Below, piece after piece: positions 40,255 to 57,860 of a stretch of 64,000 bases of DNA. A program made the position numbers and the translations under genes. The DNA is taken from positions 62,001 through 126,000 of the forward strand of contig NZ_LMFZ01000006.1 in NCBI RefSeq assembly GCF_001427305.1. Reading direction: 5' to 3'. Numbering within the stretch: the stretch's first letter is position 1; each line of letters opens with the position of its first letter. Source of the DNA: Duganella sp. Root1480D1 (GTDB lineage Bacteria > Pseudomonadota > Gammaproteobacteria > Burkholderiales > Burkholderiaceae_D). The notes beneath the pieces are model-generated. The model was given only the letters and a program-made list of their open reading frames with translations. It did not search any database and was not told the origin of the DNA.

Positions 40255-41562
40255 TTAGTGGTCCAGCAGGGCGTTGATCGGCTCCAGGTCTTCTTCCCTG
40301 AGCGAACCAGCCGCCGACTTCAGGCGCAAGCCATTCATGATGGTGTCGTAACGCGCCTTCGACAGGTCTTTCTGCGTGGTGTACAACTGGCGCTGTGCAT
40401 TCAGCACGTCGATGTTGATACGCACGCCCACCTGGTAACCCAGCTTGTTCGACTCCAGTGCGGACTTGGACGACACTTCCGCCGCTTCCAGTGCCTTGAC
40501 CTGGGCCAGGCCACTGTTCACGCCGAGGAAAGCCTGGCGCGCGGTCTGTGCCGCCTGGCGGCGCGAAGCTTCCAGGTCGTTGCGGGCCTTGTCTTCCAGG
40601 GCGATCGATTCGCGCACCTTGCTGGTCACGGCGAAGCCGTTGAAGATCGGGATGCTCCAGGTCACGCCGATGGCGTTGTTGTTGGCCAGCGAAGCGCCGC
40701 TCACCGAATTGCGGGTCTTCTGCGCCACCAGGTCCAGCGTCGGCATGTGGCCTGCACGCTGCTTGCTGATTTCACGCTTGGCGATTTCCACATTCAGCTT
40801 GGCGCCGGTCACGCCGTAGTTCTGTTCTTCTGCCGCCGACACCCACGGCTCCAGCGTTGCCGGCTGCGGGCTGGCGACAGTCACGCCGGTGCGCAGCGGT
40901 GCCAGTGCACCAGGCGCCTGGCCGATGATCTGCTGCAGTGCGGTACGCTTCACTTCCAGATCGTTCTGGGCCGCGAATTCCTGCGCCACCACCAGGTCGT
41001 ATGCTGCTTGCGCTTCGTGCGTGTCGGTGATGGTCTGGGTGCCCACTTCGAAATTGCGCTTGGCAGATGCCAGCTGCTCGGTGGTGGCCGCCTTCTGCGC
41101 CTGGGTCGCGGTCAGGTTGTCCTGTGCGGTCAGCACGTCGAAGTAGGCCTGCGACACGCGCAGGATCACGTCTTGCTGCGCTTGCGCAAACACGGCTTCC
41201 GCTGCGGCGGTGGACAGCTTGCCCTGCTGGTAGTTTTCCCAGTTGGCCCAGCGGAACAGGGGCTGGGTCAATTGCAGCTGCATCGTGTGGCTGTAGTTAT
41301 CCGTGTCGCCAGAGAGGCCTTTGATGCGGTCAGTCTGGTCGCCGCTGTTTTTCAAGGCAGTGCCACTGAGGCCGACAGTTGGAAGCAATTGCGAACGTCC
41401 CTGCGCCGTGCGTTCCTGGCCAGCTGCCAGCGCGGCACGGGCGCTGGCGTAAGTGGCGTCGTTGGCGAGCGCCTGTTTGTACACCTGGACCAGGTCGGCC
41501 GCCTGTGCATTCAGCGAGAACAGGGCGCTGGATACCAGCACGGCGAGGAGGGGTTTCTGCAT
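40255..41562 (-). CDS. tolC: TolC-family outer-membrane channel protein
   Basis: A 435-residue outer-membrane efflux protein with signal peptide (MQKPLLAVLVSSALFSLNAQA) and two homologous halves of long alpha-helices and short barrel strands, the TolC pattern (DLVQVYKQALANDATYASARAALAAGQ, YRVGTQTITDTHEAQ-like turn, LGYQVGVRINIDVLNAQRQLYTTQKDLSKARYD). It is the exit duct for type I secretion and RND/MFS pumps. GGAG lies six bases before the ATG at 41562; upstream in-frame ATGs would overlap that site. Follows rhodanese and pcm genes, the usual order in this group. Confidence 0.94.
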   Translation of the reverse strand: MQKPLLAVLVSSALFSLNAQAADLVQVYKQALANDATYASARAALAAGQERTAQGRSQLLPTVGLSGTALKNSGDQTDRIKGLSGDTDNYSHTMQLQLTQPLFRWANWENYQQGKLSTAAAEAVFAQAQQDVILRVSQAYFDVLTAQDNLTATQAQKAATTEQLASAKRNFEVGTQTITDTHEAQAAYDLVVAQEFAAQNDLEVKRTALQQIIGQAPGALAPLRTGVTVASPQPATLEPWVSAAEEQNYGVTGAKLNVEIAKREISKQRAGHMPTLDLVAQKTRNSVSGASLANNNAIGVTWSIPIFNGFAVTSKVRESIALEDKARNDLEASRRQAAQTARQAFLGVNSGLAQVKALEAAEVSSKSALESNKLGYQVGVRINIDVLNAQRQLYTTQKDLSKARYDTIMNGLRLKSAAGSLREEDLEPINALLDH

Positions 41563-41605
41563 TTGCATCTCCGTTGGAGTCGTCAAAAAGGATTAGTTTT
41601 CGTGC

Positions 41606-41929
41606 CTAATACTGCGGCATTGAGCTGTCTACCTGCACAGCCCAGGCGTGAATCCCGCCTGTCAGATTGCTTACCTTGCTGAAACCATGATGCTCGAGGA
41701 ATGCTGCCACGTTGAGGCTGCGCGCCCCGTGGTGGCAGATGCAGACGATTTCTGCATCCTCGTCGAGATCGTCGATGCGGGCCGGGATGGTCTGCATCGG
41801 CATCAGGGTCGAGCCTGCGATATGGCAGGTCTCGAATTCCCAGTTCTCGCGCACGTCCAGCAGGAAAGGCTTGCTGCGGCTTTCATCATTCAGCCAGCCA
41901 GCCAGTTCCGGTGCGGTTAAGTGCTGCAT
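41606..41929 (-). CDS. Rhodanese-like sulfurtransferase
   Basis: A 107-residue single-domain rhodanese. The catalytic loop CHHGARS (with Cys as the sulfur carrier), the N-terminal LLDVRENWEFETCHIAGSTLMPM and the C-terminal LTGGIHAWAVQVD are typical. Role could be persulfide transfer or redox sensing. Lies 9 bp after the pcm-like gene and 43 bp before tolC, likely one transcript. Confidence 0.9.
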   Translation of the reverse strand: MQHLTAPELAGWLNDESRSKPFLLDVRENWEFETCHIAGSTLMPMQTIPARIDDLDEDAEIVCICHHGARSLNVAAFLEHHGFSKVSNLTGGIHAWAVQVDSSMPQY

Positions 41930-41938
41930 TGGCGTTCC

Positions 41939-42592
41939 TTAGAAAGTGAACGCCGAAGGTTTCACCGCCAGGTCGAGCGGCTTGACATCGGTCTCAAACA
42001 GTTTGACGGTGTCGTAGCCGTGGTCGCCGGTGCGGGTAATGCGGTGCGCGGACATCACAGGCGAATCGCCGATGATGGCCACGATGCGGCCGCCTACCTT
42101 CACTTGCTGCAGCACTGCTTCCGGCAGTACCGGCAGCGAGCCGGAGAACACGATCACGTCGAACGGCGCGCCGTTGGACCAGCCCTGGGCGCCATTGCCC
42201 AGTTCCACGGTCACATTGGAAATGCCGTTCGCCGCCAGGTTCTTTTCCGCCAGCGCCTTCAGTTCAGGCGCGATTTCGACGGCGGTAACGTGGCGTGCAC
42301 GGTGGGCCAGCAGCGCGGCCAGGTAGCCGGTGCCCGCGCCAACCAGCAGCACGTTTTCATGTTTCTTGATTTGCGCATCTTGTGCCATGCGCGCTTCCAG
42401 CTTCGGGGTCAGCATTTGCTCGCCACCCGCCAGCGGAATGAAAGTGTCGACAAAAGCCAGGTTCTTGTAGGCTTCTGGCACGAAATTCTCGCGTTTTACG
42501 ACCAGCAAGAGATCGAGGATGTCCGTATCCAGCACATCCCAAGGGCGGATTTGCTGTTCGATCATATTGAAACGGGCTTGTTCGATATTCAT
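41939..42592 (-). CDS. pcm: Protein-L-isoaspartate O-methyltransferase family
   Basis: A 217-residue class I SAM methyltransferase of the PIMT family: MIEQQIRPWDVLD N-terminus, ENFVPEAYKNLAFVDTFIPLAGGEQMLTPKLEARM substrate region, SAM loop VLLVGAGTGYLAALLA and VTAVEIAPELKALAEKNL. The family repairs isoaspartyl residues, though this clade upstream of tolC is divergent and may methylate another target. ATG 42592 is preferred; twelve extra upstream codons are open. Confidence 0.88.
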   Translation of the reverse strand: MNIEQARFNMIEQQIRPWDVLDTDILDLLLVVKRENFVPEAYKNLAFVDTFIPLAGGEQMLTPKLEARMAQDAQIKKHENVLLVGAGTGYLAALLAHRARHVTAVEIAPELKALAEKNLAANGISNVTVELGNGAQGWSNGAPFDVIVFSGSLPVLPEAVLQQVKVGGRIVAIIGDSPVMSAHRITRTGDHGYDTVKLFETDVKPLDLAVKPSAFTF

Positions 42593-42735
42593 CTTTGTTG
42601 ACTCGGTGAGGGATAAATAATCCGTCATTTTATCGTTTGTCTGGTCAGGTGGGCATATTAACGATTAAGACAACGGATCGCGGGAAATTGCGACAGTCTG
42701 CAGTTTTGGGGGGGTGAACGACCAAAATCGGCAAT

Positions 42736-43386
42736 TTAAGCTGGTTTTTTCGGGGCCAGCCCCTGCTGCACCAGGCCAAGGAAGGTGTCCATGAAAGCGT
42801 CGGCGTCGACGCCCTCGTGAGTCTCGCAGGGGAAGAAGCTGTGCTTCCACATCATCAGGGTCAGCACCGGGGCGATCAGGACGTTGGTCATCATCACCGG
42901 GTCGAGCGGGCGGAATTCGCCGCGCTCCACGCCACGCTCCAGGATGCGGGTCAGCAAGGCGCTGCCGCGCTCGATGACTTCTTCATTATAGAACTGGGCA
43001 AGTTCGGGGAAATTGCCGGATTCGGCCATCATCAGCTTGGTCAGGCCGGCGGCCTTGGTGGCGCCGACCTTGGTCCACCAGGTGCGCAGCATCTGGCGCA
43101 GCAGCTCGTCGCTGGGCATGCCCTGGGCGGCGGCGGCATCGCTTTCGGCCTGGCCGATGGTCTGCACAATGGTCTCGCGCACTACGGCCTTGAACAGTTC
43201 CTGCTTGTTTTCGAAATACAGGTAGAGCGTGCCCTTGGAGACGCCGGCGGCGCGCGCCACGTCTTCCAGGCGGGTGGCGGCAAATCCACGATCGACGAAC
43301 AGTTCCAGCGCAGCCGCCAGCAATTCCTGCGGACGCGCGTCCTTGCGTCGCTCCCAGCGGGGCTTGGTATCAGTCGGGGCTTGCAT
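42736..43386 (-). CDS. TetR-family transcriptional regulator
   Basis: A 216-residue TetR repressor: HTH in ELLAAALELFVDRGFAATRLEDVARAAGVSKGTLYLYFENKQELFKAVV, then a helical ligand domain with Met-rich pocket (MMTNVLIAPVLTLMMWKHSFF). Efflux-linked TetR proteins of this look often sit near tolC and pump genes, but the pump is not adjacent. A pseudo-palindrome in its own promoter (43408-43425) suggests autoregulation. Confidence 0.92.
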   Translation of the reverse strand: MQAPTDTKPRWERRKDARPQELLAAALELFVDRGFAATRLEDVARAAGVSKGTLYLYFENKQELFKAVVRETIVQTIGQAESDAAAAQGMPSDELLRQMLRTWWTKVGATKAAGLTKLMMAESGNFPELAQFYNEEVIERGSALLTRILERGVERGEFRPLDPVMMTNVLIAPVLTLMMWKHSFFPCETHEGVDADAFMDTFLGLVQQGLAPKKPA

Positions 43387-43407
43387 ACTTAAAGTTGATT
43401 CCGGGTA

Positions 43408-43425
43408 ACTTACTTATGAGTCAGT
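43408..43425. promoter_or_regulatory. Candidate TetR autoregulatory operator
   Basis: ACTTACTTATGAGTCAGT is symmetrical at 14 of 18 positions with the ACTnACT...AGTnAGT layout of many TetR-family operators. It lies 22 bp upstream of the tetR start codon. Confidence 0.55.
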
Positions 43426-43451
43426 TATATTAGTTCCCCGTCCTCTGGACG

Positions 43452-44444
43452 TCAAGTTCCAGGCCTTTTGGCCACCGCGTAGACCGCCTGCACCACCATC
43501 GCCATCCGCTGGTAATCGATCTTTTCGAACGTATCGCCGGCCCGGTGATAGTTCGGATTGCGCATGAATGCCGTGTCGGTCACCATCAGCGCCGGATAAC
43601 CCTGCGCCCAATAACTGCGGTGATCGGAAAAATCGACGCCTTGCACAAAGCTGGGCGCGTTGAGCGAGTAGACCGGCAACTGCGACGCGCCCGACATAAC
43701 GCCCTTCACTGAACGGCTAAGGCCAAAGTCGCCGAACTGCCCCACCAGTGCGATGAAATTGCCGCGATCAGGATAAGCAAGTTTCATCGCAGCCAGCGGG
43801 TAGGCCTGGCTGCCAGGACGATCGGTAAAGTAGCCGATCATCTCCAGTGACAGCATCATCTCCACGTCACGTCCCGCCGCTTTCAGTGCGCTCGCATGCC
43901 ATACGCTGCCCATGTGAGGGGAGCGAAAGTGCGGAGGCTCTTCCAGGGTATATGCCACCAGTTCAACCGGGCGCGTTGGTCCGGCCCGTCCCAGCAGATG
44001 CGCCAATTCCAGCAAGCCCGCAATGCCGCTGGCATTGTCGTCGGCTCCGCGTGTTGCACCGTGGCTGTCGTAATGGGCGCCAATCACGAGCAGGCGCCCG
44101 CTCTCGGGGCCGAAGCGCGCGACGACATTCTTGTAGTGCTCAGCTTCGACCACCACATCCTGCATCGATACCTGCGCACCAGCTTCCTTGAATTGCTCTG
44201 CGATGTACGCCGCCGTGCGTTCCAGTTTTGGGCGCTGCTCGAATGAGCGCGGATAAAAATCGATGGACAGCTTTTTCACGTGCGCTTCGAGCCTGGCGGG
44301 ATCGACCGCTGGCGGCGTCGATGGCACTGCCGTCACCAAAGGCTGGCAGACCAACGCAGCCAACGCGAGCATCCCCGCACCGATAACAAGCAAAGCAGCA
44401 AGCAAGCGGCGATGCTTGCGCGTAGCAGACTGCGAAAAATCCAT
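43452..44444 (-). CDS. M28-family zinc aminopeptidase, membrane-anchored
   Basis: A 330-residue M28 peptidase with an N-terminal membrane anchor (LLAALLVIGAGMLALAALVC). The binuclear zinc site is visible: GAHYDSHG (His, Asp), ADDNASG (bridging Asp), TLEEPP (catalytic Glu) and SDHRSYW...NPNYHRAGDT (final His). Predicted to trim peptides in the periplasm. The ATG at 44444 has AGGA eight bases upstream; ATG at 44450 and earlier starts are possible. Confidence 0.85.
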   Translation of the reverse strand: MDFSQSATRKHRRLLAALLVIGAGMLALAALVCQPLVTAVPSTPPAVDPARLEAHVKKLSIDFYPRSFEQRPKLERTAAYIAEQFKEAGAQVSMQDVVVEAEHYKNVVARFGPESGRLLVIGAHYDSHGATRGADDNASGIAGLLELAHLLGRAGPTRPVELVAYTLEEPPHFRSPHMGSVWHASALKAAGRDVEMMLSLEMIGYFTDRPGSQAYPLAAMKLAYPDRGNFIALVGQFGDFGLSRSVKGVMSGASQLPVYSLNAPSFVQGVDFSDHRSYWAQGYPALMVTDTAFMRNPNYHRAGDTFEKIDYQRMAMVVQAVYAVAKRPGT

Positions 44445-44567
44445 TCCCATATTCCTGTCATCAAATTTCATAAGAGGATTCTGAACGCAATAGGAGAATT
44501 CGCACAACCTTTTCGCTTGCAACCATTCCACGTACAAGTACTAGCCCGGGTGGGCTATGGTGGTTGC

Positions 44568-44653
44568 GATCCTGTTTTGTCACCATACCCTCGAATTCAA
44601 AAAAACGATGTCGCGACCAGTTCGCGGCCGGTGACTACAAACCAAACAGGATC
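44568..44653 (+). promoter_or_regulatory. Leader hairpin that can mask the Shine-Dalgarno
   Basis: GATCCTGTTTTGTCACC (44568-44584) is complementary to GGTGAC (44630-44635) and to AAACAGGATC (44644-44653), with an 8-nt bulge. The right arm contains AGGA (44648-44651), the ribosome binding site of the gene at 44659. An upstream TAGCCC-GGGT-GGGCTA inverted repeat (44542-44557) precedes it. A regulated leader is inferred; the transcript start is unknown. Confidence 0.5.
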
Positions 44654-44658
44654 AACAC

Positions 44659-45525
44659 ATGAAACTCCAACATACCGCCATCGCACTCGCCTTGCTCGCA
44701 GCATCCCTGCAGGTACATGCACATGAAGACGACGAAGCTCCAGTCAAATACAAGCCAGGCATGCGCTACGGCGACAGCGCTTCGATGGGCAACGGCCGCT
44801 TCACTGCCTACACCAAGATCAGCCCTAAAGGTAAGCCGGAAGCAATCGGCGTCGAATTCCACGAATCGACCCTGCAGAACCTGCCGCACCATCCGCTCAA
44901 CGACGGCAAGACCTGCCTGGACCTGAACAACGACGACAAGATCGACGACCATGACGAATGCGTGGGCGGCCACTCGCGCACCCTGTACTTCGACCCGAAT
45001 CCAAGCCAGCTCAAAAGCATTACCATCAACTGGGAAGCACACGGCCACGTGCCGGACCAGGTGTATGACCGTCCGCACTTCGACTTCCACTTCTACACCA
45101 TCGCCGACACCGAACGCCTGGCCATCATCACCGGCACCTGCCCTGGCCTGGTCAACTGCGCCATCGCGGACAAGGCCAAGGTTCCGGTAGCAGCGCAGTA
45201 CGTGCATCCGGACATGTTCAACACCAACCTGGTGTACGCGCACATGGGCAACCACTACGCCGATGCCACCGCACCTGAATTCAACGGCGGCACGTTCACC
45301 AACACCTTCATCCTCGGCACCTTCGACGGCCGCATCACGTTCTACGAGCCGATGATGAGCAAGGACTACCTCGACTCCAAGCCAAACGATTGCGAACCGG
45401 TCAAGCAGCCGGCCGCCGTGCAAACCGATGGCTGGTATCCGACCCAGTATTGCACCCGCTACAACGAGAACAACAAGACCTACCGCGTCTCGTTCGAAGC
45501 ATTCACTTACCGCAAAGCCAGCTGA
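44659..45525 (+). CDS. Exported protein, possibly DUF5602/TTHB210-like
   Basis: A 288-residue secreted protein with signal peptide MKLQHTAIALALLAASLQVHA. Notable are an EF-hand-like loop DLNNDDKIDDHDE (about 92-104), a His-rich core HFDFHFYTIAD (about 140-150) that could bind metal, and paired Cys residues in GTCPGLVNCA. The HxDxHFY pattern recalls the DUF5602/TTHB210-like group; I am not certain. It opens the five-gene operon and its Shine-Dalgarno lies in a leader hairpin. Role in the pathway is unknown; a periplasmic binding or modifying protein is possible. Confidence 0.7.
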   Translation: MKLQHTAIALALLAASLQVHAHEDDEAPVKYKPGMRYGDSASMGNGRFTAYTKISPKGKPEAIGVEFHESTLQNLPHHPLNDGKTCLDLNNDDKIDDHDECVGGHSRTLYFDPNPSQLKSITINWEAHGHVPDQVYDRPHFDFHFYTIADTERLAIITGTCPGLVNCAIADKAKVPVAAQYVHPDMFNTNLVYAHMGNHYADATAPEFNGGTFTNTFILGTFDGRITFYEPMMSKDYLDSKPNDCEPVKQPAAVQTDGWYPTQYCTRYNENNKTYRVSFEAFTYRKAS

Positions 45526-45561
45526 ATCATGCTCGCTATTTTCACTTATTGAGGAATCACC

Positions 45562-46875
45562 ATGGAACAGTTTGACGTCATCGTCGTGGGCGGCAGCGTG
45601 TCCGGCGCGCCCACCGCCACCTGGCTGGCACGCAAGGGCCATAAAGTACTGATGGTCGAGCGCGACACCTTCCCGCGCGACACCAACTCCACCCACTTCA
45701 TCTGGCCGCGCGGCATGTCCTACCTGAACCGCCTGGGCGTGGCCGGCAAGGTGCTGGAGCAGACTCCAAGCTTCAAGCAACTGGAAGTCTCCATCGAAGG
45801 CATCAGCCTGCACGGTGGCGTACCGGTGCAGGCGGTCAAGGACCGTTTCATCAAGCTGCATGGCGACGATCACGGCGTGGTCGACTACTACTCCGGCCCG
45901 CGCCGCTTCTACCTGGACAAGGTGCTGATGGATGAAGCGCGTGCTTCCGGCGTCGACGTGCGCGAAGCCACCACCGTGCAATCGCTGATCATCGAAGAAG
46001 GCCGGGTGGTCGGTGTGCGCGGCAGCGGCCCGGATGGCGTGCTGCTGGCGGCACGTGCCCGCGTGGTGGTCGGCGCCGATGGCCGCATGTCGCAATTCGC
46101 CGGCATGGTCGGCGCCGAGAAAACCGTGGTGCGCGAGAAGTCGACCTTCGCCTACTACGGCTACTTCAGCGGCATCGACAAGCCGGAACTGTGCATCCAC
46201 AAGCGCGGCCGCTTCGGCACCGCCATCTTCCCGACCATGGAAGACCGCCACCTGGTGCTGGTGTACGGTCCGACCGCCTGGTGGAGCGACTTCAGCAAGG
46301 ATCCGGAAGCGAACTTCCATAAGACCTATGGCTACGTGGCGCCGGAAGTGGCCGCCATCGTCGCCAAAGGCAAGCGCGTGGAAGAATTCAAGGCCATGGG
46401 CCGCATGGTGGCCTATCACCGCCAGACCTACGGCAACGGCTGGGTGCTGGTGGGCGACGCCTGCAGCTTCAAGGACCAGTGGACCGCGATGGGCATCACC
46501 CACTCGCTGCGCGACGCCGAGCTGGTATCGGGTTTCCTGGACCGCGTGCTGAAGAACGAAGCTTCGTTCGAACAGGCGATGGCCGAATACCACGAAATGC
46601 GCCTGGCCGACTACGAAGACTACTGGAGCTTCGTGTGCGACGGCGCCGAGTGCAACCCGTACACCCGCGAGCACCTGGAATTCTTCCATGCGATCCAGGG
46701 CGACCAGTCCAAGGTCGACCACTTCATGGGCCAGGTCGGCGACACCATCCCGTTCTCGACTGCGATCGCGCTCGATGGCGAAGCCCGCCCGGTTCCGGAC
46801 TACATCAAGAACTACGACCCTGAGGCGCTGAACTATTTCGCCAACCTCTACGAAGAAGTGAAAGCCGCAGCCTGA
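45562..46875 (+). CDS. FAD-dependent oxidoreductase/monooxygenase
   Basis: A 437-residue flavoprotein of the aromatic-hydroxylase/geranylgeranyl reductase superfamily. FAD motif VVGGSVSGAPTATWLARKGH (9-28), a substrate loop NSTHFIWPRGMSYLNRLGV, VVVGADGRMSQFAG (DG motif) and GWVLVGDACSFKDQWTAMGI (GD motif, about 290-309). The last motif fits the branch whose members hydroxylate or epoxidise small molecules. AGGAATC precedes the ATG. Second gene of the operon, 36 bp after the secreted protein gene. Substrate unknown. Confidence 0.85.
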   Translation: MEQFDVIVVGGSVSGAPTATWLARKGHKVLMVERDTFPRDTNSTHFIWPRGMSYLNRLGVAGKVLEQTPSFKQLEVSIEGISLHGGVPVQAVKDRFIKLHGDDHGVVDYYSGPRRFYLDKVLMDEARASGVDVREATTVQSLIIEEGRVVGVRGSGPDGVLLAARARVVVGADGRMSQFAGMVGAEKTVVREKSTFAYYGYFSGIDKPELCIHKRGRFGTAIFPTMEDRHLVLVYGPTAWWSDFSKDPEANFHKTYGYVAPEVAAIVAKGKRVEEFKAMGRMVAYHRQTYGNGWVLVGDACSFKDQWTAMGITHSLRDAELVSGFLDRVLKNEASFEQAMAEYHEMRLADYEDYWSFVCDGAECNPYTREHLEFFHAIQGDQSKVDHFMGQVGDTIPFSTAIALDGEARPVPDYIKNYDPEALNYFANLYEEVKAAA

Positions 46876-46895
46876 GTCGTTAATTCCCTCCTGTC

Positions 46896-46916
46896 GCGCC
46901 GGCCCCGCGCCGGCGC
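46896..46916 (+). terminator. Hairpin between FAD oxidoreductase and kinase genes
   Basis: GCGCCGG (46896-46902) pairs with CCGGCGC (46910-46916) around a 7-nt loop in the 73-bp gap. No T-run follows, so it is more likely an attenuator or mRNA-processing/stabilising element than a full terminator. Confidence 0.5.
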
Positions 46917-46948
46917 ACATCTGTTGTTCCCACCCAAAGGAAACCATC

Positions 46949-47851
46949 ATGCAAGCGACATCCATTGGCGTTGACGCAGCATCCGCATTGCGTCTCAAAG
47001 CGCCCGGCACCTGCGGTGAATTGATGCAAGGCGCCATCGACGAACAGGACTTCCTGGTCAACTGCCCGGTCAACCTGTTCTCCTATGCCACCGTCGAAGA
47101 ACACGACGACGGCCTGCACCTGTCGGACCTGAACCGCTTCACCAAGATCCGCGACACCATTTCGCTGGCCGCGCACGAATACGCTTTCCGCCTTGGCCAC
47201 AAGATCGCCATCTACAGCGACATCCCGCGCGGCAAAGGCATGGCGTCCAGTTCGGCCGACATCACGGCCGCGCTGGAAGCGGTGTTCCGCAGCGCCGAAG
47301 TACGCCTGGACGCGCAACTGTTCGCGCGCCTGGTGACCGAAATCGAACCGTCCGACTGCGTGCACTTCCCCGGCATCGCGGAAGTCAACCACCTGACCGG
47401 CCGCCTGATCGACTCGATGCCGGCGCCAGCCGACCTCAATGTGCTGGTCGTGGACTGCGGCGGCGAGATCGACACCATCGGCTTCGACCGCAAGAAGGCG
47501 CGCGCCATCTACCGCCAGAACCAGCCTTACCTGAAAGACGCGCTGGCCAAGCTGAAACGCGGCCTGCGCCATGCCGATCCGCTGGCCGTGGCGGAAGCGG
47601 CAACTGCCAGCGCGACGCTGAGCCAGCAAATCCACCTCAAGCCACAGTTCGACGAAATGCTGGCCACCAGCCGCGAGCTGGGTGCGCTGGGCGTCAACTG
47701 CGCCCACAGCGGCACCGTGCTGGGCGTGATGTACCGCGCCAGCGATCGCCTGGGCGACACCCTCAAACAAGACATCGTGCGTCGTTTCGGCAAGAGCGTC
47801 GAAATCGTCGGCGACTTCAAGATTATCAGCGGAGGATGCTATGACTGCTAA
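46949..47851 (+). CDS. GHMP-family kinase, PduX (L-threonine kinase)-like
   Basis: A 300-residue GHMP kinase. The start APGTCGELMQGAIDEQDFLVNCPV is close to the PduX N-terminus; the ATP loop is PRGKGMASSSADI (about 91-103) and NCAHSGTVLGVM (about 250-261) is the third GHMP motif. PduX phosphorylates L-threonine to O-phosphothreonine for the aminopropanol linker of cobalamin. Here no cobalamin synthesis gene is adjacent, so another hydroxy-amino acid or use is possible. AGG in AAAGGAAACC precedes the ATG; it overlaps the next gene by 11 bp. Confidence 0.82.
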   Translation: MQATSIGVDAASALRLKAPGTCGELMQGAIDEQDFLVNCPVNLFSYATVEEHDDGLHLSDLNRFTKIRDTISLAAHEYAFRLGHKIAIYSDIPRGKGMASSSADITAALEAVFRSAEVRLDAQLFARLVTEIEPSDCVHFPGIAEVNHLTGRLIDSMPAPADLNVLVVDCGGEIDTIGFDRKKARAIYRQNQPYLKDALAKLKRGLRHADPLAVAEAATASATLSQQIHLKPQFDEMLATSRELGALGVNCAHSGTVLGVMYRASDRLGDTLKQDIVRRFGKSVEIVGDFKIISGGCYDC

Positions 47852-48959
47852 CAACCTGGATATTTTCCAGACCCGTTTCCACAACCCGTCCATTTTCGCG
47901 ATCCGTTCGCGCACCAAGTACCAGGGCAAGCTGACCGACTTCTGCGTGCCGGCCAATTCGTATTTCCCGCCACCGCAGATGCTGGACCTGATCGCGCAGA
48001 ACATGGGCGATATCCTCAAGTACTACCCGGACTATTCGCCGGTGTACCAGGAAGCGATTGCCGGCCTGGTCGGCACCCCGGCCGAGAACATCGTGGTGGC
48101 AAACGGCATCACGGAAATCATCACGATCCTGTGTCGCGACAGCGGCGGTCCGATCCTGACCTCGGTGCCTACCTTTGGCCGCTGGACCGACTTGCCGCCT
48201 GAATTCAACATCCCGGTCCACTTCGTGCACCGCGACCGCGCCCGCGACTTCGTGATCGGCGCCGACGACGTGATCGCCCGCGCGCGCGAAACCGGCGCCA
48301 AGACTGTCGTCATCTGCAATCCGAACAACCCGACCGGCGCATGGTTCAGCAGCGACGATATCCGCAAGATGGCATGCGAGCTGTCCGACATCGACGCCCT
48401 GATCATCGACGAATCGTTCATCGAATTCTCCGGCCTGGAAAGCGCGGAAGCGCTGGCGATGGAGTCGCCCAACGTGATCGTGGTGAAGAGCATGGGCAAG
48501 TCGCTCGGCTGGCACGGCATTCGCCTGGGCTACGCGGTGGCCAATACGCGCGCTGCCGCCGCCCTGCGCGCCAAAGTCCCGTACTGGAACGTGAACGGCC
48601 TGGCCGGCTTCGTGCTGAAGAACATCGGCCAGTTCAAGGACATCTATGCGCAGAGCTTCGTCAAGGTCGCCGAAGACCGTGAATACATGTACCGCCAATT
48701 GCAAACGGTGCCGGGCCTGAAGACTTATCCATCCAAGGGCAACTTCCTGTTCAGCGAACTGCCGGAAGGCGTGTCGGGCAAGCAGGTGCGCGATATCCTG
48801 CTCGATCAGTATGGCCTGGTGATCCGCGAATGCAGCAACAAGGCCGGATCGACCGAGCAATACCTGCGCAGCGTGGTGCGCGTGCGGGCAGACGCCGACA
48901 AGCTGGTGGCCGCGCTGACCGAAGTGCTGGCGGCCTACGCGCCGGCCGAGGCGGCGTGA
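47841..48959 (+). CDS. PLP-dependent aminotransferase/decarboxylase, CobD/HisC-like
   Basis: A 372-residue fold-type I PLP enzyme. VANGITEIITIL (phosphate loop), CNPNNPTGAWFS (about 159-170), IIDESFIEF (Asp to pyridine N) and the Schiff-base Lys220 in KSMGKSLGWHGIRLGY are clear, and the whole resembles CobD threonine-phosphate decarboxylase and its relative HisC. With the preceding kinase it could turn O-phosphothreonine into 1-amino-2-propanol phosphate, or transaminate another phosphorylated substrate. GGAGG inside the kinase gene gives its ribosome site; its stop overlaps the next start (TGATG). Confidence 0.83.
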   Translation: MTANNLDIFQTRFHNPSIFAIRSRTKYQGKLTDFCVPANSYFPPPQMLDLIAQNMGDILKYYPDYSPVYQEAIAGLVGTPAENIVVANGITEIITILCRDSGGPILTSVPTFGRWTDLPPEFNIPVHFVHRDRARDFVIGADDVIARARETGAKTVVICNPNNPTGAWFSSDDIRKMACELSDIDALIIDESFIEFSGLESAEALAMESPNVIVVKSMGKSLGWHGIRLGYAVANTRAAAALRAKVPYWNVNGLAGFVLKNIGQFKDIYAQSFVKVAEDREYMYRQLQTVPGLKTYPSKGNFLFSELPEGVSGKQVRDILLDQYGLVIRECSNKAGSTEQYLRSVVRVRADADKLVAALTEVLAAYAPAEAA

Positions 48960-49933
48960 TGGAAGCGGCTCCGATGGCGCCGCAGCTGCTGGTCAGGGTA
49001 GCGCAGCGGCGCGAAGAAGCGCTTGGCATCGCCAGCTTCGAGCTGCGCGCGCTGGACGGCGGCGAGCTGCCGCCCTTCACCGCCGGTGCCCACATCGACG
49101 TGCAGGCGCCGAATGGCATCGTGCGCCAATACTCGATCTGCAGTTCGCCGCTGGAACGCGGGCGCTACCTGCTCGGCATCCTGGACGATCCCGCGTCGCG
49201 CGGCGGTTCCCGTGCCATGCATGAGGAAATCGTCACGGACGACGTGCTGTGCATCAGCGCCCCGCGCAACCATTTCGCCCTGGTCCCCGCCCGGCGCACC
49301 TTGCTGCTGGGCGGCGGCATCGGCATCACGCCGATGCTGGCGATGGCGGCGGAACTGGCGGCGCAAGGCCGTGACTTCGAACTGCACTACTGCGCCCGCT
49401 CGCGCGAGCGGGCCGCCTTCCTTGATCTGATCGCGCAGTCGCCGTGGGCCGGTCGCGCCATGCTGCACCTCGACGATGAGGGACCATACCAGCTGTTCAA
49501 CGCCGATGCGCTGCTGGCGGTGCCGGACACTGGTACCCATGTCTACGTCTGCGGCCCGGCAGGCTTCATCGCCCACGTGCGCGAGCGCGCGGCGGCGCAC
49601 GGCTGGCCGGCGGCACAGGTTCACGTCGAACACTTCGCCGCGCCGGTGCAAGAGCTGCCCGAACCGGGCGCTTTCGACGTGCGCATCGCCAGTACCGGCA
49701 AGGTAATCCGGGTCGGCGCCAACAAGACGGTGGCCGGCGTGTTGAGCGAACATGGCATCGCCATTCCGCTGTCCTGCAACGAGGGCCTGTGCGGCACCTG
49801 CATTACGGGCGTGCTGGCCGGTACGCCCGAACATCGCGACTGTTACTTCACCGAAGAAGAAAAGGCGCGCAATAACCAGTTCATGCCTTGCTGCTCACGT
49901 TCACTGGATCACACCCTGGTTCTCGACCTGTAA
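48959..49933 (+). CDS. Flavin reductase with C-terminal [2Fe-2S] domain
   Basis: A 324-residue oxidoreductase of the phthalate dioxygenase reductase/VanB type: flavin domain with RQYSICSSP (near 60-68), NAD domain LLLGGGIGITPMLAMA and YVCGPAGFI, and a plant-type ferredoxin domain with CNEGLCGTC and a distal Cys near the C-terminus (MPCCSRS). It passes electrons from NAD(P)H to an oxygenase. No Rieske oxygenase is present; the only oxygenase candidate nearby is the FAD protein four genes upstream. The ATG at 48959 overlaps the previous stop by one base. Confidence 0.9.
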   Translation: MEAAPMAPQLLVRVAQRREEALGIASFELRALDGGELPPFTAGAHIDVQAPNGIVRQYSICSSPLERGRYLLGILDDPASRGGSRAMHEEIVTDDVLCISAPRNHFALVPARRTLLLGGGIGITPMLAMAAELAAQGRDFELHYCARSRERAAFLDLIAQSPWAGRAMLHLDDEGPYQLFNADALLAVPDTGTHVYVCGPAGFIAHVRERAAAHGWPAAQVHVEHFAAPVQELPEPGAFDVRIASTGKVIRVGANKTVAGVLSEHGIAIPLSCNEGLCGTCITGVLAGTPEHRDCYFTEEEKARNNQFMPCCSRSLDHTLVLDL

Positions 49934-49938
49934 AAAAA

Positions 49939-49954
49939 GGCGCCCGCGGGCGCC
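49939..49954. terminator. Palindromic hairpin with A-run, after SDR and reductase
   Basis: GGCGCCCGCGGGCGCC is a perfect 16-bp palindrome preceded by seven A (49932-49938). It gives a stem followed by T on the minus strand, fitting the end of the SDR transcript; it lies 6 bp after the reductase stop. Confidence 0.7.
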
Positions 49955-49991
49955 TAAGTACTGGGAGACCTTTCCCCGGTAATGACATCGA

Positions 49992-50013
49992 AAGGCCCGC
50001 GCGAGCGGGCCTT
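49992..50013. terminator. Second hairpin between convergent reductase and SDR genes
   Basis: AAGGCCCGC (49992-50000) pairs perfectly with GCGGGCCTT (50005-50013) around a GCGA tetraloop. It lies 7 bp after the SDR stop and probably acts with the palindrome at 49939 as a bidirectional terminator pair. Confidence 0.75.
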
Positions 50014-50019
50014 GATGCA

Positions 50020-50769
50020 TTACAGGGTCGCCATGCCGCCGTCGAACAGGATGTTCTCGCCGATCATGTAGGACGAATCGTCGCTTGCCAGGAACAGCAC
50101 GGCTTTTGCGACTTCGTCAGGCTGCCCGAAGCGCGAGGCAGGCACTTTGGCCATCAGCTGGCCGGCCCACTCCTGCACGGCTTCCGGCGGCAGGCCCAGC
50201 TTGCTGTAGATCGGGGTCTCGATCAGGCCCGGGCTGATGACGTTGACACGCACGCCGCGTGGGGTCAGCTCGGTCGACAGGGTACGCGCCAGCGAACGCA
50301 CTGCAGCCTTGGTGGCCGAGTACACCGCCAGGCCGGCCACGCCCTGTTCAACCAGGGTGGTGCCGGTCAGCACCACGCTCGATGGGTTGTTCAGCATCGA
50401 CAGCACGCTTTGCACGGTGTAGATCACGCCCTTGAAGTTGACGTCCACCTGGTTGTCGATGTGTTTGGCGTCCACGTCCGAGAACGGCATCGGCTGGGCG
50501 ATGCCGGCATTGGCGAACACCACGTCCAGGCTGCCAAAAACCGACTTCAGCTTGGCCGCAACGCCGGCCATGTCCGACGCCGAGGATACGTCGGCGCGCA
50601 GCGCCAGGACGCCTTCGCCGAGTTCCTTGCCGGCCGCTTCGACGCGCTGTGCGTCCTGGCCAATGATCGCAACGCGTGCGCCCTCTTTCAGGAACAGCTT
50701 GGCCGTCGCCAGGCCGATGCCAGTGGTGCCGCCGGTGATCAGAGCGGTTTTGCCAGTCAGTCTACCCAT
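50020..50769 (-). CDS. Short-chain dehydrogenase/reductase (SDR)
   Basis: A 249-residue classical SDR: cofactor motif ITGGTTGIGLATAKLF (about 9-24), NAGIAQ (about 85-90), catalytic Ser and YSATKAAVRSLART (about 146-159) and the usual C-terminal ending. It would oxidise or reduce a carbonyl or alcohol. AGGAG is placed seven bases before ATG 50769; ATG 50772 is equally possible. It converges on the reductase gene and is divergent from tetR, with three TACCG-type operator sites between. Confidence 0.9.
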   Translation of the reverse strand: MGRLTGKTALITGGTTGIGLATAKLFLKEGARVAIIGQDAQRVEAAGKELGEGVLALRADVSSASDMAGVAAKLKSVFGSLDVVFANAGIAQPMPFSDVDAKHIDNQVDVNFKGVIYTVQSVLSMLNNPSSVVLTGTTLVEQGVAGLAVYSATKAAVRSLARTLSTELTPRGVRVNVISPGLIETPIYSKLGLPPEAVQEWAGQLMAKVPASRFGQPDEVAKAVLFLASDDSSYMIGENILFDGGMATL

Positions 50770-50821
50770 CATCTTCTCCTTGAAAGGCCGCCCTGCAGAG
50801 GGCGGCAAAAAAATTGAAAAA

Positions 50822-50874
50822 TACCGGTCCGTCTTTATTTATGTACCGATAGGTATTTAATATACCGGTTAGTA
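50822..50874. promoter_or_regulatory. Operator cluster between SDR and tetR genes
   Basis: Three related sites, TACCGGTCCGTC (50822), TACCGATAGGTA (50844) and TACCGGTTAGTA (50863), lie in the divergent promoter. The middle one, TACC-GATA-GGTA, has perfect 4-bp arms; its 19-bp surroundings (50843-50861) recur upstream of the LuxR gene. The adjacent TetR protein is the likely binder (inference). Confidence 0.75.
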
Positions 50875-50911
50875 TAATATTCGTCAACCAAACGATTTAA
50901 TGGAGATCACC

Positions 50912-51553
50912 ATGACGCGCGAACGCGGCCGCCCACGCACTTTCGATATCGACCACGCCCTGGACCGGGCGGTGGAAGTGTTCTGGAAGCATGGCTATCA
51001 GGACGCTTCCCTCCACGAGCTGACCGATGCGATGGGGCTGTCGAAACCGAGCCTGTACGCGGCCTTCGGCGACAAGGAAGCCCTGTACCTGAAAGGCTTG
51101 CAGCGCTACCTGTCGTTGCTGATCGCGCGCCATGCGGCCAAGCTCAATGACGAGCCAGACGGCCGCACCGCCCTGCAAGGTTTCCTGCGCTCGCTGGCCG
51201 AGATGCTGGCCGATCCCGAACTGCCGGGCGGCTGCTTCATCATCAACGGCACCGCCGATTGCGGCGGCTCGAGCATTCCCGCCTCGGTGGAGATGGCATT
51301 GCGCTCGGCCCTGCAGGGCACGGAAACGATGGTTCTGCAGCGCCTGGGGCGGGCGGAGGAAGATGGCCAGTTGCCGCCCGGGATGACGCCGCAGGCGATG
51401 GCCGCGCTGTTCAGTTCATTGATTGCGGGCCTGGCCGTGATGGCCAAGAGCGGCGCAGGCCAGGAAAAGCTGATGACGGTGATTGATACCGCGATGGCCG
51501 TGTGGCCCAAGACACCGGCGCCGACCCGCAAGCGGCACCTGAAGGCGGCTTAA
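50912..51553 (+). CDS. TetR-family transcriptional regulator
   Basis: A 213-residue TetR protein: HTH TFDIDHALDRAVEVFWKHGYQDASLHELTDAMGLSKPSLYAAFGDKEALY, then a helical ligand domain with GCFIINGTADCGG. GGAG (50902-50905) lies six bases before the ATG at 50912, preferred to the ATG at 50900. Divergent from the SDR gene; TetR/SDR pairs of this kind usually repress the dehydrogenase until its substrate appears. Its last 4 bp overlap the convergent LuxR gene. Confidence 0.92.
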   Translation: MTRERGRPRTFDIDHALDRAVEVFWKHGYQDASLHELTDAMGLSKPSLYAAFGDKEALYLKGLQRYLSLLIARHAAKLNDEPDGRTALQGFLRSLAEMLADPELPGGCFIINGTADCGGSSIPASVEMALRSALQGTETMVLQRLGRAEEDGQLPPGMTPQAMAALFSSLIAGLAVMAKSGAGQEKLMTVIDTAMAVWPKTPAPTRKRHLKAA

Positions 51554-52281
51554 ACTTCGATCAGGCCGGAGGAGATGGCCTTGGCCACGGCATGCCCGCG
51601 GGTGGAGGCATTCAGCTTGGCCAGCAGGTTGCTGACGTGGATCTTGACCGTCCACGAGCTGATGCCGAGGATAGAGGCCATTTCCGAATTCGACTTGCCG
51701 CCGCAGATCCACTTCAGCACTTCCTGTTCGCGCTCGGTGAGGATTTTCTTGGGGCGCTTGTTGCCGAATTCCTCGACATGGGTGAGCGCGTAATGCAGGT
51801 GCGGCGCCAGCAGTTGCAGCAGGAAAGCCGTCTCGCGGTTCCACTGGTCGAGGTTCCCGAACGAGAAGTAGCAGGCGTGCTCCTGGCTCAGGCTCATCAC
51901 CCCATGGATAGCGACATTGCGGATGCCATGCCGCTCGGCGTTGGCCAGCCATGCGCGGTCGCCCGGCAAGAGCAACGATGAATCCGGGTCGACGAATACC
52001 GGGCTGCGCGTCTCAACCCAGCGGCGCAGCGCAGGGCACGGGCAGTGGTTATCCTCGACCACAAAGCCGTTCATGAAAGCTGCAGGGAAACTGAGGTTAA
52101 CCGCTTCCACGATGCGCCGGTCCGCCATGCGCATGCAACCGCATGCGAACATCGCGTGGGGCAGCACGTCGCGCAGGCGAGGGCCTACAACGGTGCGGAA
52201 ATCCTGCAGCGTCGATACGCTGTGGCAGGCCTGGATGAAGGCGGCAACGGCGGCGGTCTGCTCTTTACTGAGGCTGTTCAT
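51550..52281 (-). CDS. LuxR-family regulator, EpsA-like
   Basis: A 243-residue regulator. The C-terminal LuxR HTH is ILTEREQEVLKWICGGKSNSEMASILGISSWTVKIHVSNLLAKL. The N-terminal 170 residues (ACGCMRMADRRIVEAVNLSFP) resemble the EpsA-type, autoinducer-like domain of betaproteobacteria. The frame is open to 52533, but the start ATG at 52281 is chosen because the shared TACCGATAGGTA operator (52342-52360) and an AT-rich promoter stretch lie inside the longer version. No luxI partner is nearby, so it is an orphan (solo). Confidence 0.85.
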   Translation of the reverse strand: MNSLSKEQTAAVAAFIQACHSVSTLQDFRTVVGPRLRDVLPHAMFACGCMRMADRRIVEAVNLSFPAAFMNGFVVEDNHCPCPALRRWVETRSPVFVDPDSSLLLPGDRAWLANAERHGIRNVAIHGVMSLSQEHACYFSFGNLDQWNRETAFLLQLLAPHLHYALTHVEEFGNKRPKKILTEREQEVLKWICGGKSNSEMASILGISSWTVKIHVSNLLAKLNASTRGHAVAKAISSGLIEV

Positions 52282-52609
52282 GGCGTCTGTCAACTCTGAA
52301 GGTGCGTACAACCAATGTCGAGATCCTGGTCGGCGAATTTCGTACCGATAGGTACTTAATGTAGCGAAGTATATAAAATTTGTCAACATTTCGATCTGGT
52401 CGAAAGAGGTATGGGCCGCTTGCTTCCTGGCCGCATAATAATCCATCTGTTGTTTTTTATACAATTTTTGCCGAATGGCGGTGATGCCTCCGTTGCCCGC
52501 AGCATATGCATGCCGGGGCGGCGGAGTGGTCATAGTGGACCAGGGGACAGGATGCGGGAATCAGTACTGCCACCTAATTTCGATGGCAGCAAGTACCTAA
52601 TTTAGGCGC
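52282..52609. other. Intergenic region upstream of the LuxR gene
   Basis: The gap between the LuxR start and the end of the DUF2149-like gene. It holds the operator at 52342-52360, AT-rich promoter-like sequence (about 52361-52390) and no credible gene; the only long frame is the upstream extension of the LuxR gene. Confidence 0.6.
52342..52360. promoter_or_regulatory. Second copy of the TACCG operator, before luxR
   Basis: GTACCGATAGGTACTTAAT matches 50843-50861 at 18 of 19 positions and lies 61 bp upstream of the LuxR start codon. A weaker TAGCGAAGTA follows 19 bp later, the same spacing as between the second and third SDR/tetR sites. Confidence 0.75.
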
Positions 52610-52969
52610 TTACTTGGGGCGCGTTGCTGCGTTTTTCGGCGGCTCGATCAACACCAGCTGGCCAGTCTTGGGGTCGCGGAACACTTCGCCGACCCGGTCG
52701 TAGCCGCTGCCGGCTTGCGTGACGCCAGTGGCCGGGCGCTCGATCTGGCGCCCCTTCTCAACCGGCTTGTGCTGGAGCGCGCCCTGGCTGCCGGCGATGG
52801 CGGCGATCAGGCCGCAGGCGAACACCAGCATCACGTCGACCAGGTTGACCAGGCTGGCGCGCGGGTCTTCGTCGCTGTCGTCGAAGCGGTTATCGAGGTG
52901 GCGATAGAGGCGCAAGCGCTTGCGGGCCGGAACGGCGGTGTTGCCGGGGGCTTGGGCCTGGTCCCTCAT
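52610..52969 (-). CDS. DUF2149/ExbD-like membrane protein
   Basis: A 119-residue protein: basic N-terminus, one membrane helix LVNLVDVMLVFACGLIAAIA (40-59) and a short soluble tail. The helix carries Asp45 in VDVML, the same context as the proton-conducting Asp of ExbD/TolR. DUF2149 proteins occur beside ExbB-like and CobN-like genes. Its ATG overlaps the ExbB-like stop (ATGA). It is last of the riboswitch-controlled operon. Confidence 0.82.
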   Translation of the reverse strand: MRDQAQAPGNTAVPARKRLRLYRHLDNRFDDSDEDPRASLVNLVDVMLVFACGLIAAIAGSQGALQHKPVEKGRQIERPATGVTQAGSGYDRVGEVFRDPKTGQLVLIEPPKNAATRPK

Positions 52970-53409
52970 GCTGCATGCTCCATTGCATCCAACGTTTCTT
53001 CGTACCAGCGGCGGCGCAATTTGCCGATCACCAGGCCGGCGATGCCGGCGACCAGGCCCAGCACGGTGGCATCGAAAGCGACTGTCACGGCGCTGGCCAG
53101 TTGGGCGGGGTTGCCTTGGCCGAGCGCGGCCAGCCCGGGGCCGAGGGGGATGATAGTGGCCATCAGGCCGAGCATCGGCGGGATGCGGGCCAGCAGGTCG
53201 GCGCGTTCCAGGCGGTGGCGCGCCAGGGCCTGGACGTGGGCGGCGTTGCCGGCGGCGCGCAGCTTTTTCAGGCCGCTGAAACGTTCGCCGGCAGCGATCC
53301 CGGCTTCCACCGCCGCCACCGCGCAGGCGGCCAGGAGGGCCAGCAGGGCTGGGGCGAGGAGGAAGCTGACGCCGTCGTGCAGCCAGGCGTAGGTTTGGTT
53401 GTCGATCAT
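52966..53409 (-). CDS. MotA/TolQ/ExbB-like proton channel protein
   Basis: A 147-residue protein with three hydrophobic segments (about 15-38, 79-98, 103-126). The pair ARIPPMLGLMATIIPLGPGLAALGQGN and TVAFDATVLGLVAGIAGLVIG is the hallmark of ExbB/TolQ channels. It is short because it lacks the large cytoplasmic loop of classical ExbB. Start overlaps the CobN-like stop (ATGA). Likely couples proton flow to the CobN-like protein or to an outer-membrane step, with the ExbD-like protein. Confidence 0.88.
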   Translation of the reverse strand: MIDNQTYAWLHDGVSFLLAPALLALLAACAVAAVEAGIAAGERFSGLKKLRAAGNAAHVQALARHRLERADLLARIPPMLGLMATIIPLGPGLAALGQGNPAQLASAVTVAFDATVLGLVAGIAGLVIGKLRRRWYEETLDAMEHAA

Positions 53410-57809: not shown

Positions 57810-57860
57810 AGCAGGATTCCGAGCACGCGAAACCACACCCCGGGCTTCGCACAATCAAGG

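What the first reader, a model, noticed from the sequence alone, without database searches (positions are those of the whole stretch)
44659..49933. Uncharacterised operon joining a PduX-like kinase and CobD-like PLP enzyme to redox genes
Seen: five + strand genes with overlaps or short gaps: secreted protein, FAD oxidoreductase, GHMP kinase, PLP enzyme, [2Fe-2S] flavin reductase. Known: PduX makes O-phosphothreonine and CobD decarboxylates it to aminopropanol phosphate for cobalamin. Inference: no cobalamin synthesis genes are adjacent, so the same chemistry may feed a different small molecule, then oxidised by the FAD enzyme with electrons from the reductase. The EpsA-like LuxR and TetR regulators next door fit a regulated or signal-linked product. 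Alternative: a dispersed cobamide-linker salvage pathway. I know of no described pathway with this gene set.
Basis: partly seen in the sequence, partly recalled or inferred. Interest (0 to 1): 0.78.

Follow-up and report, generated by a model that had tools for sequence, protein, structure and literature searches.

The report
Mobile operon reusing vitamin-B12 linker chemistry
A rare, transferable gene cluster pairs an amino-acid kinase and a decarboxylase, related to those that make the vitamin B12 linker, with redox enzymes, apparently to make some other, still unknown small molecule.

Summary
The five genes are real and correctly placed. The operon is an accessory unit, not part of cobalamin synthesis. 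Of 40 genomes of the genus, 40 have cbiB but 2 the operon kinase. All four carriers found keep a separate CobD-type hit beside a cbiB hit elsewhere. The window PLP enzyme fails the CobD model (178.6 against 290.55 bits; the genome's own CobD scores 347.7). In trees it leaves CobD and HisC-like rows and joins the 6oux (SMUL_1544-type) decarboxylase (100/99; p-AU 1e-11 against CobD). The kinase is its own lineage on the PduX/cobalamin-kinase side; all nine kinases on the other side have a cysteine-synthase-like neighbour. A six-gene unit (secreted protein, FAD enzyme, kinase, PLP enzyme, SDR, TetR) recurs in Azohydromonas lata and Massilia with different flanks; in Azohydromonas the [2Fe-2S] reductase is missing. 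Most likely it makes an amino-alcohol phosphate from threonine (or serine) and oxidises a derivative; substrate, product and oxidation step are inferred.

The parts
44659..45525 (+). SEC: secreted DUF5602/TTHB210-type protein, 288 aa, first gene of the unit; invariant His/Asp/Glu suggest a metal site
   Evidence: eight sequences aligned, the window's included; H130, H140, D142, H144, H199, D202, E230 invariant; no hit of its own in Pfam or NCBIfam
45562..46875 (+). FAD-dependent oxidoreductase of the FAD_binding_3 / GG-reductase / halogenase-like superfamily, 437 aa
   Evidence: 66% identical in Azohydromonas; lacks the D-P stretch seen in the four halogenase alignments shown
46949..47851 (+). 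GHMP kinase, own lineage on the PduX/cobalamin-kinase side; likely amino-acid O-kinase
47841..48959 (+). PLP enzyme, likely phospho-amino-acid decarboxylase of the 6oux (SMUL_1544)-type clade, not CobD and not HisC
48959..49933 (+). phthalate-dioxygenase-reductase-type NAD(P)H reductase with plant-type [2Fe-2S] domain; not conserved in the whole unit
   Evidence: 2pia, 215 bits; absent at the Azohydromonas locus
50020..50808 (-). SDR oxidoreductase, part of the conserved unit
   Evidence: at E<=1e-70 only in the 2 of 40 genus genomes that carry the operon; 62% identical next to the Azohydromonas core
50900..51553 (+). TetR regulator divergent from the SDR, part of the conserved unit
   Evidence: 55% identical next to the Azohydromonas core; TetR_N
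51550..52458 (-). EpsA-like LuxR regulator; in the Duganella and Massilia H-1 loci, absent at the Azohydromonas locus
   Evidence: (122 bits against cut-off 170)
43428..52630 (.). accessory island in a variable site; two related genomes hold about 8.5 kb and 6.4 kb of other DNA here

Best explanation
This is a horizontally moved, TetR-linked biosynthetic unit of six conserved genes. The GHMP kinase phosphorylates the hydroxyl of an amino acid, most likely L-threonine. The PLP enzyme decarboxylates the phospho-amino acid to an amino-alcohol phosphate (aminopropanol phosphate, or ethanolamine phosphate if the substrate is serine). The amino-alcohol phosphate, or its dephosphorylated form, does not go to cobalamin: it is the core of another small molecule that the FAD monooxygenase-like enzyme and/or the SDR oxidise or reduce. 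The secreted DUF5602-type protein acts outside the cytoplasm on the product or binds a metal for it. The reductase is an optional add-on in the Duganella/Massilia version. Shown: gene content, the conserved unit, independence from the genome's cobalamin genes, phylogenetic placement. Inferred: transfer, substrates, reaction order, product, the oxidation step, regulation by TetR and the role of the secreted protein.
For: Own genome: canonical CobD (347.7 bits, cut-off 290.55) beside CbiB, with CobQ, CobB and CobO on another contig. CbiB in 40 of 40 genus genomes, 33 over cut-off, but the operon kinase in 2 of the same 40 (a third has a 33% relative) and its SDR in the same 2. Same-genus genome G040 has CobD and CbiB but no kinase match at 1e-10. 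All four carriers have a CobD-type hit directly beside a CbiB hit elsewhere. PLP enzyme: 100/99 clade with 6oux, Nonomuraea, Spirosoma and four enzymes near cytidylyltransferase and/or CDP-alcohol phosphatidyltransferase genes. Kinase: 96/95 on one side with four reference kinases, all in cob or pdu loci; the 9 kinases on the other side all have a cysteine-synthase-like neighbour, 3 by annotation and 6 by tblastn, one of these in part only. Unit recurs in Azohydromonas and Massilia H-1 with SDR and TetR but other flanks.
Against: No substrate or product is known. The kinase's nearest lineages are cobalamin kinases, and no other kinase of this family was found in the own genome, so it could also feed CobD there. 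The closest solved PLP relative works, as recalled, in norcobamide synthesis. Both structure predictions failed (pLDDT 47.8 and 37.7), so nothing is known of the FAD active site beyond sequence. The unit was found in only four genomes, one with broken frames.
Confidence: 0.55

Rival explanations
1. A second cobamide-linker supply: the pair makes aminopropanol phosphate or ethanolamine phosphate for a modified cobamide (norcobamide type) and the redox genes are unrelated passengers.
For: Nearest solved PLP relative is 6oux, the SMUL_1544-type enzyme, whose gene lies between cbiB and cobU; kinase branches beside cob-cluster kinases; carriers have cobalamin genes.
Against: No cob gene within the unit; own CobD and CbiB elsewhere; unit kept with FAD enzyme, SDR, TetR and secreted protein amid other flanks in another family; 38 of 40 genus genomes have cbiB without the operon kinase.
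Confidence: 0.12
2. Hydroxylate-phosphorylate-decarboxylate logic: the FAD enzyme first hydroxylates an amino acid, the kinase phosphorylates the new hydroxyl and the PLP enzyme decarboxylates it to a phosphorylated amine, in the manner (recalled) of psilocybin synthesis.
For: Gene order FAD enzyme, kinase, PLP enzyme in the window, CF458 and Azohydromonas; FAD enzyme relatives have NRPS or PKS genes within two genes in 3 of 7 loci inspected (against 30, 46, 72 and a second locus of 84).
Against: Kinase and PLP enzyme both group with enzymes thought to act on small phospho-amino acids, which need no prior hydroxylation; no direct evidence for the FAD enzyme's substrate.
Confidence: 0.1
3. The PLP enzyme is an aminotransferase (HisC-like) or does elimination or replacement on the phospho-amino acid, so the product is a keto or unsaturated compound.
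For: HisC model also hits (161 bits, below its cut-off of 276.55); several relatives in plasmid records are annotated histidinol-phosphate transaminase.
Against: Tree separates it from the HisC-like rows; the kinase is not on the cysteine-synthase side; it reads WNVN where 6oux has WNIN and two CobD rows WS(V/I)N, while the HisC-like rows have F or Y first.
Confidence: 0.13

Closest known systems
PduX / cobalamin-cluster L-threonine kinases with CobD
   Same: GHMP kinase paired with a PLP enzyme of the CobD/HisC superfamily; kinase falls on the same side of the tree
   Different: PLP enzyme outside CobD; no cob or pdu genes in the unit; strict PduX clade rejected (p 0.0008)
SMUL_1544-type phospho-amino-acid decarboxylase (PDB 6oux; that the two are one protein is recalled)
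   Same: PLP enzyme in one 100/99 clade with it
   Different: SMUL_1544 lies between cbiB and cobU in a cobamide cluster (passages of PMC7755780); the window enzyme has a kinase and a different gene set, and a clade with 6oux alone is rejected (p 0.0125)
PLP genes near cytidylyltransferase and/or CDP-alcohol phosphatidyltransferase genes in Mesorhizobium, Bradyrhizobium, Erwinia and Agrobacterium plasmids
   Same: same PLP clade; no cobalamin gene in the stretches read
   Different: no GHMP kinase relative in the stretches; head-group type partners; two of the four near a phosphoenolpyruvate mutase gene
Vibrio europaeus plasmid cluster with GHMP kinase, CobD-like PLP enzyme, ATP-grasp and glutamate-cysteine ligase genes
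   Same: kinase plus CobD-like pair with no cobalamin gene in the stretch read and no cbiB on the plasmid
   Different: PLP enzyme only 24% identical and on a long branch; different partners
Kinase plus cysteine-synthase-like clusters, several with a lyase gene (Streptomyces, Kitasatospora, Sinorhizobium, Azospirillum, Paracoccus and genomes of the window's family; diaminobutyrate type, recalled)
   Same: same kinase family used outside cobalamin
   Different: other side of the kinase tree; cysteine-synthase-like PLP partner instead of a CobD-like one

Membership tests
CobD (TIGR01140) | score over the curated cut-off | tested here: not met
   178.6 against 290.55 bits; the genome's other copy scores 347.7
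CobD (TIGR01140) | falls in the CobD clade | tested here: not met
   grouping with Klebsiella and Manganitrophus CobD rejected, p-AU 1.1e-11; the three CobD rows of the window's own family stand apart
CobD (TIGR01140) | linked to cbiB or other cobinamide genes | tested here: not met
   none in the unit; cbiB and CobD together on another contig
CobD (TIGR01140) | O-phosphothreonine decarboxylase activity | not testable with these tools
   needs enzyme assay
6oux (SMUL_1544)-type decarboxylases | shares a supported clade with the solved enzyme | tested here: met
   100/99 in three trees; the 6oux row is partial (residues 67-389) and on a long branch
HisC (TIGR01141) | score over the curated cut-off | tested here: not met
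   161.2 against 276.55 bits
PduX threonine kinase | GHMP kinase N-terminal domain | tested here: met
   PF00288 40.3 bits
PduX threonine kinase | falls in the PduX clade | tested here: not met
   held together with the two PduX rows alone: p-AU 0.0008; wider PduX/cobalamin-kinase side 96/95
PduX threonine kinase | curated family model | tested here: inconclusive
   the two PduX rows also hit only generic GHMP models in NCBIfam, none over its cut-off, so no model separates them
PduX threonine kinase | phosphorylates L-threonine | not testable with these tools
   needs enzyme assay
FAD-dependent halogenase | D-P-x-x-S stretch near the flavin (motif recalled) | tested here: not met
   window reads FKDQWTAMG where CndH, 8zop, CmlS and ChlB4 read F-x-D-P
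Phthalate dioxygenase reductase type | flavin, NAD and C-terminal plant-type [2Fe-2S] domains | tested here: met
   2pia 215 bits over 10-324; NAD_binding_1 and Fer2 at 243-314
EpsA (TIGR03020) | score over the curated cut-off | tested here: not met
   122.1 against 170 bits
DUF5602 / TTHB210-like secreted proteins | Pfam TTHB210-like match | tested here: inconclusive
   SEC itself has none; two of the three relatives scanned match PF18197

The most novel reading that the evidence does not exclude
A dedicated, self-contained pathway without NRPS or PKS genes builds a new oxidised aminopropanol (or ethanolamine) phosphate metabolite, perhaps a signal or antimetabolite, from threonine, showing that the cobalamin-linker chemistry has been split off as a transferable module that moves between unrelated chromosomal sites.
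Probability: 0.35. Interest if true: 0.72.

Novelty: new variant of a known kind. Interest (0 to 1): 0.52.

Why it matters
Kinase plus CobD chemistry is known from cobamides. A mobile unit that uses it elsewhere would give a marker for unknown small molecules and would warn against annotating such kinase/PLP pairs as cobalamin genes. It also gives a compact, testable system: six genes, with the genome's own CobD as internal control.

Tried and rejected
Cobamide salvage was tested by counting cbiB, CobD and the kinase in carriers and in the genus and is disfavoured. A general link between DUF5602 proteins and flavin enzymes looked strong at first: a flavin oxygenase within two genes in the window/Azohydromonas, Streptomyces, Azoarcus, Rhodococcus and Haladaptatus loci. 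It did not hold in a wider check: none in Chroococcidiopsis (flavodoxin and glutathione reductase genes only), Halorussus or three more proteobacterial genomes, the last three judged by eye. So 5 of 10 lineages inspected, and the first ones were seen before the idea was formed; I do not use it as evidence. Halogenase as the FAD enzyme's function: disfavoured on the missing stretch. Insertion ends: no tRNA between 40000 and 56000 and no exact shared repeat of 12 nt or more between 43301-43600 and 52401-52800, so the transfer mechanism is unknown. GC of the island (61.8%) does not stand out from the window (63.4%). The promoter scan found nothing on the + strand. AlphaFold models of the secreted protein and the FAD enzyme were too poor to use, so no fold search was run. 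Literature: searches listed no paper on this gene set; I saw listings and passages of two papers only, and this library lacks most subscription papers. The first PLP tree contained a long-branch Vibrio row and one duplicate row; both were left out and the tree rebuilt; the Vibrio kinase was likewise left out of the final kinase tree. Three carriers (window, CF458, Azohydromonas) are in the trees; Massilia H-1 was left out because its frames are broken. Four of the seven weak kinase relatives (G138, G148, G159, G181) and the weak one (G1066) were not looked at further.
Full report
Observation. The five + strand genes are present at the stated coordinates, with spacings of +36, +73, -11 and -1 nt. 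They encode a secreted 288-aa protein without Pfam or NCBIfam match, an FAD_binding_3 oxidoreductase, a GHMP kinase, a class I/II aminotransferase-fold PLP enzyme, and a reductase of the phthalate dioxygenase reductase type (2pia, 215 bits). Orthologues in the same order occur in Duganella sp. CF458 (L002; 88-96% identical) and, for the first four, in Azohydromonas lata (L003; 50-66%).

The real unit. In Azohydromonas the core SEC, FAD enzyme, kinase, PLP enzyme is followed by a TetR gene and an SDR gene that match window genes 50900-51553 (55%) and 50020-50808 (62%) as the same divergent pair, turned round; the reductase and the LuxR gene are not there. Of nine flanking or edge genes of the Duganella locus none is found in the 18.9-kb Azohydromonas locus and only the LuxR gene in the Massilia one. 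Of the 18 genes called in the Azohydromonas locus, only the six unit genes match the Massilia locus. So three carriers have three different sets of flanks. A DNA search of 41000-56000 against 40 genomes of the genus found the left flank in all 40 and the right flank in 9, but the operon region only in the window genome and G219 (it scored 7 candidates a genome). A kinase search over the same 40, with every candidate scored, agrees: 2 of 40, plus one 33% relative in G1066 that was not followed. G219 is taken to be Duganella CF458 because its contig has the same length. In two related genomes the same two flanks enclose about 8.5 and 6.4 kb of other DNA: the operon lies in a variable site, about 43428-52630. 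The SDR at E<=1e-70 is likewise in 2 of the 40 genomes, the same two.

How rare it is. Samples, not whole groups, were searched, and some searches scored only a few candidates a genome. Kinase relatives at high identity: 3 of 294 genomes of the family; 7 further weak ones at 28-31%, of which L061 and L062 were read and look siderophore-like by eye. FAD enzyme: 2 of 399 genomes of the order at E<=1e-30, the second a 38% relative with no other unit gene in the 18 kb read. FAD enzyme of Azohydromonas in its own family: 1 of 200, itself. Kinase in the phylum at E<=1e-22: 5 of 398; the other four, all from one family (f58), are 30-35% identical and were not read.

Cobalamin. The window genome has, on contig C21, a CobD of 347.7 bits (cut-off 290.55) beside CbiB (169.8, cut-off 165.9), with CobQ (669), CobB (429) and CobO-type (280) models over their cut-offs in the same stretch. 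All four carriers have a TIGR01140 hit next to a CbiB hit away from the operon; below cut-off are the TIGR01140 hits of Azohydromonas (133.9) and Massilia H-1 (157.1, with a stop) and the CbiB hits of G219 (165.6) and Massilia H-1 (118). CbiB is found in 40 of 40 genus genomes, 33 over cut-off. G040, same genus, has CobD and CbiB but no kinase match at 1e-10. A survey of cobamide genomics notes that pduX is absent from most verified producers (passage of PMC6461909). So cobalamin synthesis does not generally need this operon. Against this: no other kinase of this family was found in the own genome, so double use there is not excluded. A CobN/Mg-chelatase family gene lies 3.5 kb downstream; seven genomes without the operon share that flank, two of them at the same site.

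PLP enzyme. It scores 178.6 for CobD and 161.2 for HisC, below both cut-offs. Its best solved relative is 6oux, 'threonine phosphate decarboxylase-like enzyme' (130 bits against 89 for 1lc5, CobD). That 6oux is SMUL_1544 is recalled; the same name is used for SMUL_1544, between cbiB and cobU, in PMC7755780 (passages). That SMUL_1544 acts on O-phosphoserine in norcobamide synthesis is recalled; only the title of that paper was seen, in a reference list. In the final tree of 22 rows the window clade joins 6oux, Nonomuraea, Spirosoma and four rhizobial/Erwinia/Agrobacterium enzymes at 100/99; grouping it with two CobD rows is rejected (p-AU 1.1e-11). A clade of the core with 6oux alone is also rejected (p 0.0125), so 6oux is a neighbour, not a sister. 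The four relatives lie near cytidylyltransferase and/or CDP-alcohol phosphatidyltransferase-type genes, three of them directly beside the latter, two also near phosphoenolpyruvate mutase, and the Erwinia one is fused to a nucleotidyltransferase domain. I read this lineage as phospho- or phosphono-amino-acid decarboxylases (inference). Its six members from plasmid records have no relative of the window kinase in the stretches read; O-phosphoserine is a normal metabolite, so a dedicated kinase here points rather to O-phosphothreonine or another hydroxy-amino acid (inference).

Kinase. In the tree of 16 rows the window clade (99/99) sits with the cob-cluster kinases of Manganitrophus and Peptoclostridium and with PduX (96/95), apart from nine other kinases. 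All nine have a cysteine-synthase-like gene beside them: three by annotation, six by tblastn, the Paracoccus one in part only. On the window's side CobD genes lie directly beside the Manganitrophus and Klebsiella kinases and 3.4 kb from the Peptoclostridium one; the Salmonella stretch read shows pdu genes only. Grouping with PduX alone (p 0.0008) or with the three lyase-linked rows (p 0.005) is rejected. So the kinase is on the side whose partners are decarboxylases, but is its own lineage. NCBIfam has no model that tells PduX apart.

Redox genes and secreted protein. The FAD enzyme's best solved hits are halogenases (79 bits at most), but the stretch that reads F-x-D-P in the four alignments shown reads FKDQWTAMG here. 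Its relatives at 30-36% have NRPS or PKS genes within two genes in 3 of 7 loci inspected (NRPS by annotation, PKS by eye). The reductase has 65-72%-identical DNA relatives at other places in at least 19 of the 40 genus genomes and is missing at the Azohydromonas locus, so I treat it as optional. The secreted protein keeps four His, two Asp and one Glu invariant over eight sequences from bacteria and an archaeon, which suggests a metal site.

Mechanism. Most likely: amino acid, kinase, phospho-amino acid, PLP decarboxylase, amino-alcohol phosphate, then oxidation by FAD enzyme and/or SDR, with TetR as regulator. The first two steps rest on phylogeny and gene pairing; the rest on co-conservation only. 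Alternatives are a modified cobamide linker, hydroxylation before phosphorylation, or other PLP chemistry. Novelty: known enzyme families in a gene set for which my paper searches listed no description; the library is incomplete.

Noticed in passing
window 52613-57854 (-): CobN/Mg-chelatase family gene with MotA/ExbB and DUF2149 genes; in two related genomes (L096, L097) a TonB-dependent-receptor-type gene lies beside them, which is missing here where the island sits.
   Followed up: partly
L018 4406-12461 (Vibrio europaeus plasmid): A further GHMP kinase plus CobD-like PLP pair with no cobalamin gene in the stretch read, with ATP-grasp, glutamate-cysteine ligase, SHMT and transporter genes: probably an unstudied biosynthetic cluster.
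   Followed up: partly
L061, L062 and L063 (G111, G001, G192): PduX-family kinase directly followed by a cysteine-synthase-like gene; in L061 and L062 an ATP-grasp-like gene and nearby ABC and TonB-receptor-like genes by eye: looks like a siderophore or metallophore locus.
   Followed up: partly
L101 6194-8056 (Erwinia rhapontici plasmid); L029, L100, L102: Relatives of the window PLP enzyme near CDP-alcohol phosphatidyltransferase-type genes, in Erwinia fused to a nucleotidyltransferase domain: possible unusual phospholipid head-group pathways.
   Followed up: partly
L020, L076, L081, L083: DUF5602-type genes near flavin oxygenases (QhpG-type in Azoarcus, BagK/FevA1-like in Rhodococcus and Haladaptatus, 4-hydroxyphenylacetate hydroxylase type in Streptomyces); not seen in five other lineages.
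   Followed up: yes
L004 (Massilia sp. H-1): The operon is present but most genes are broken into pieces in different frames; the genome scores 48% complete, so probably sequencing error.
   Followed up: partly
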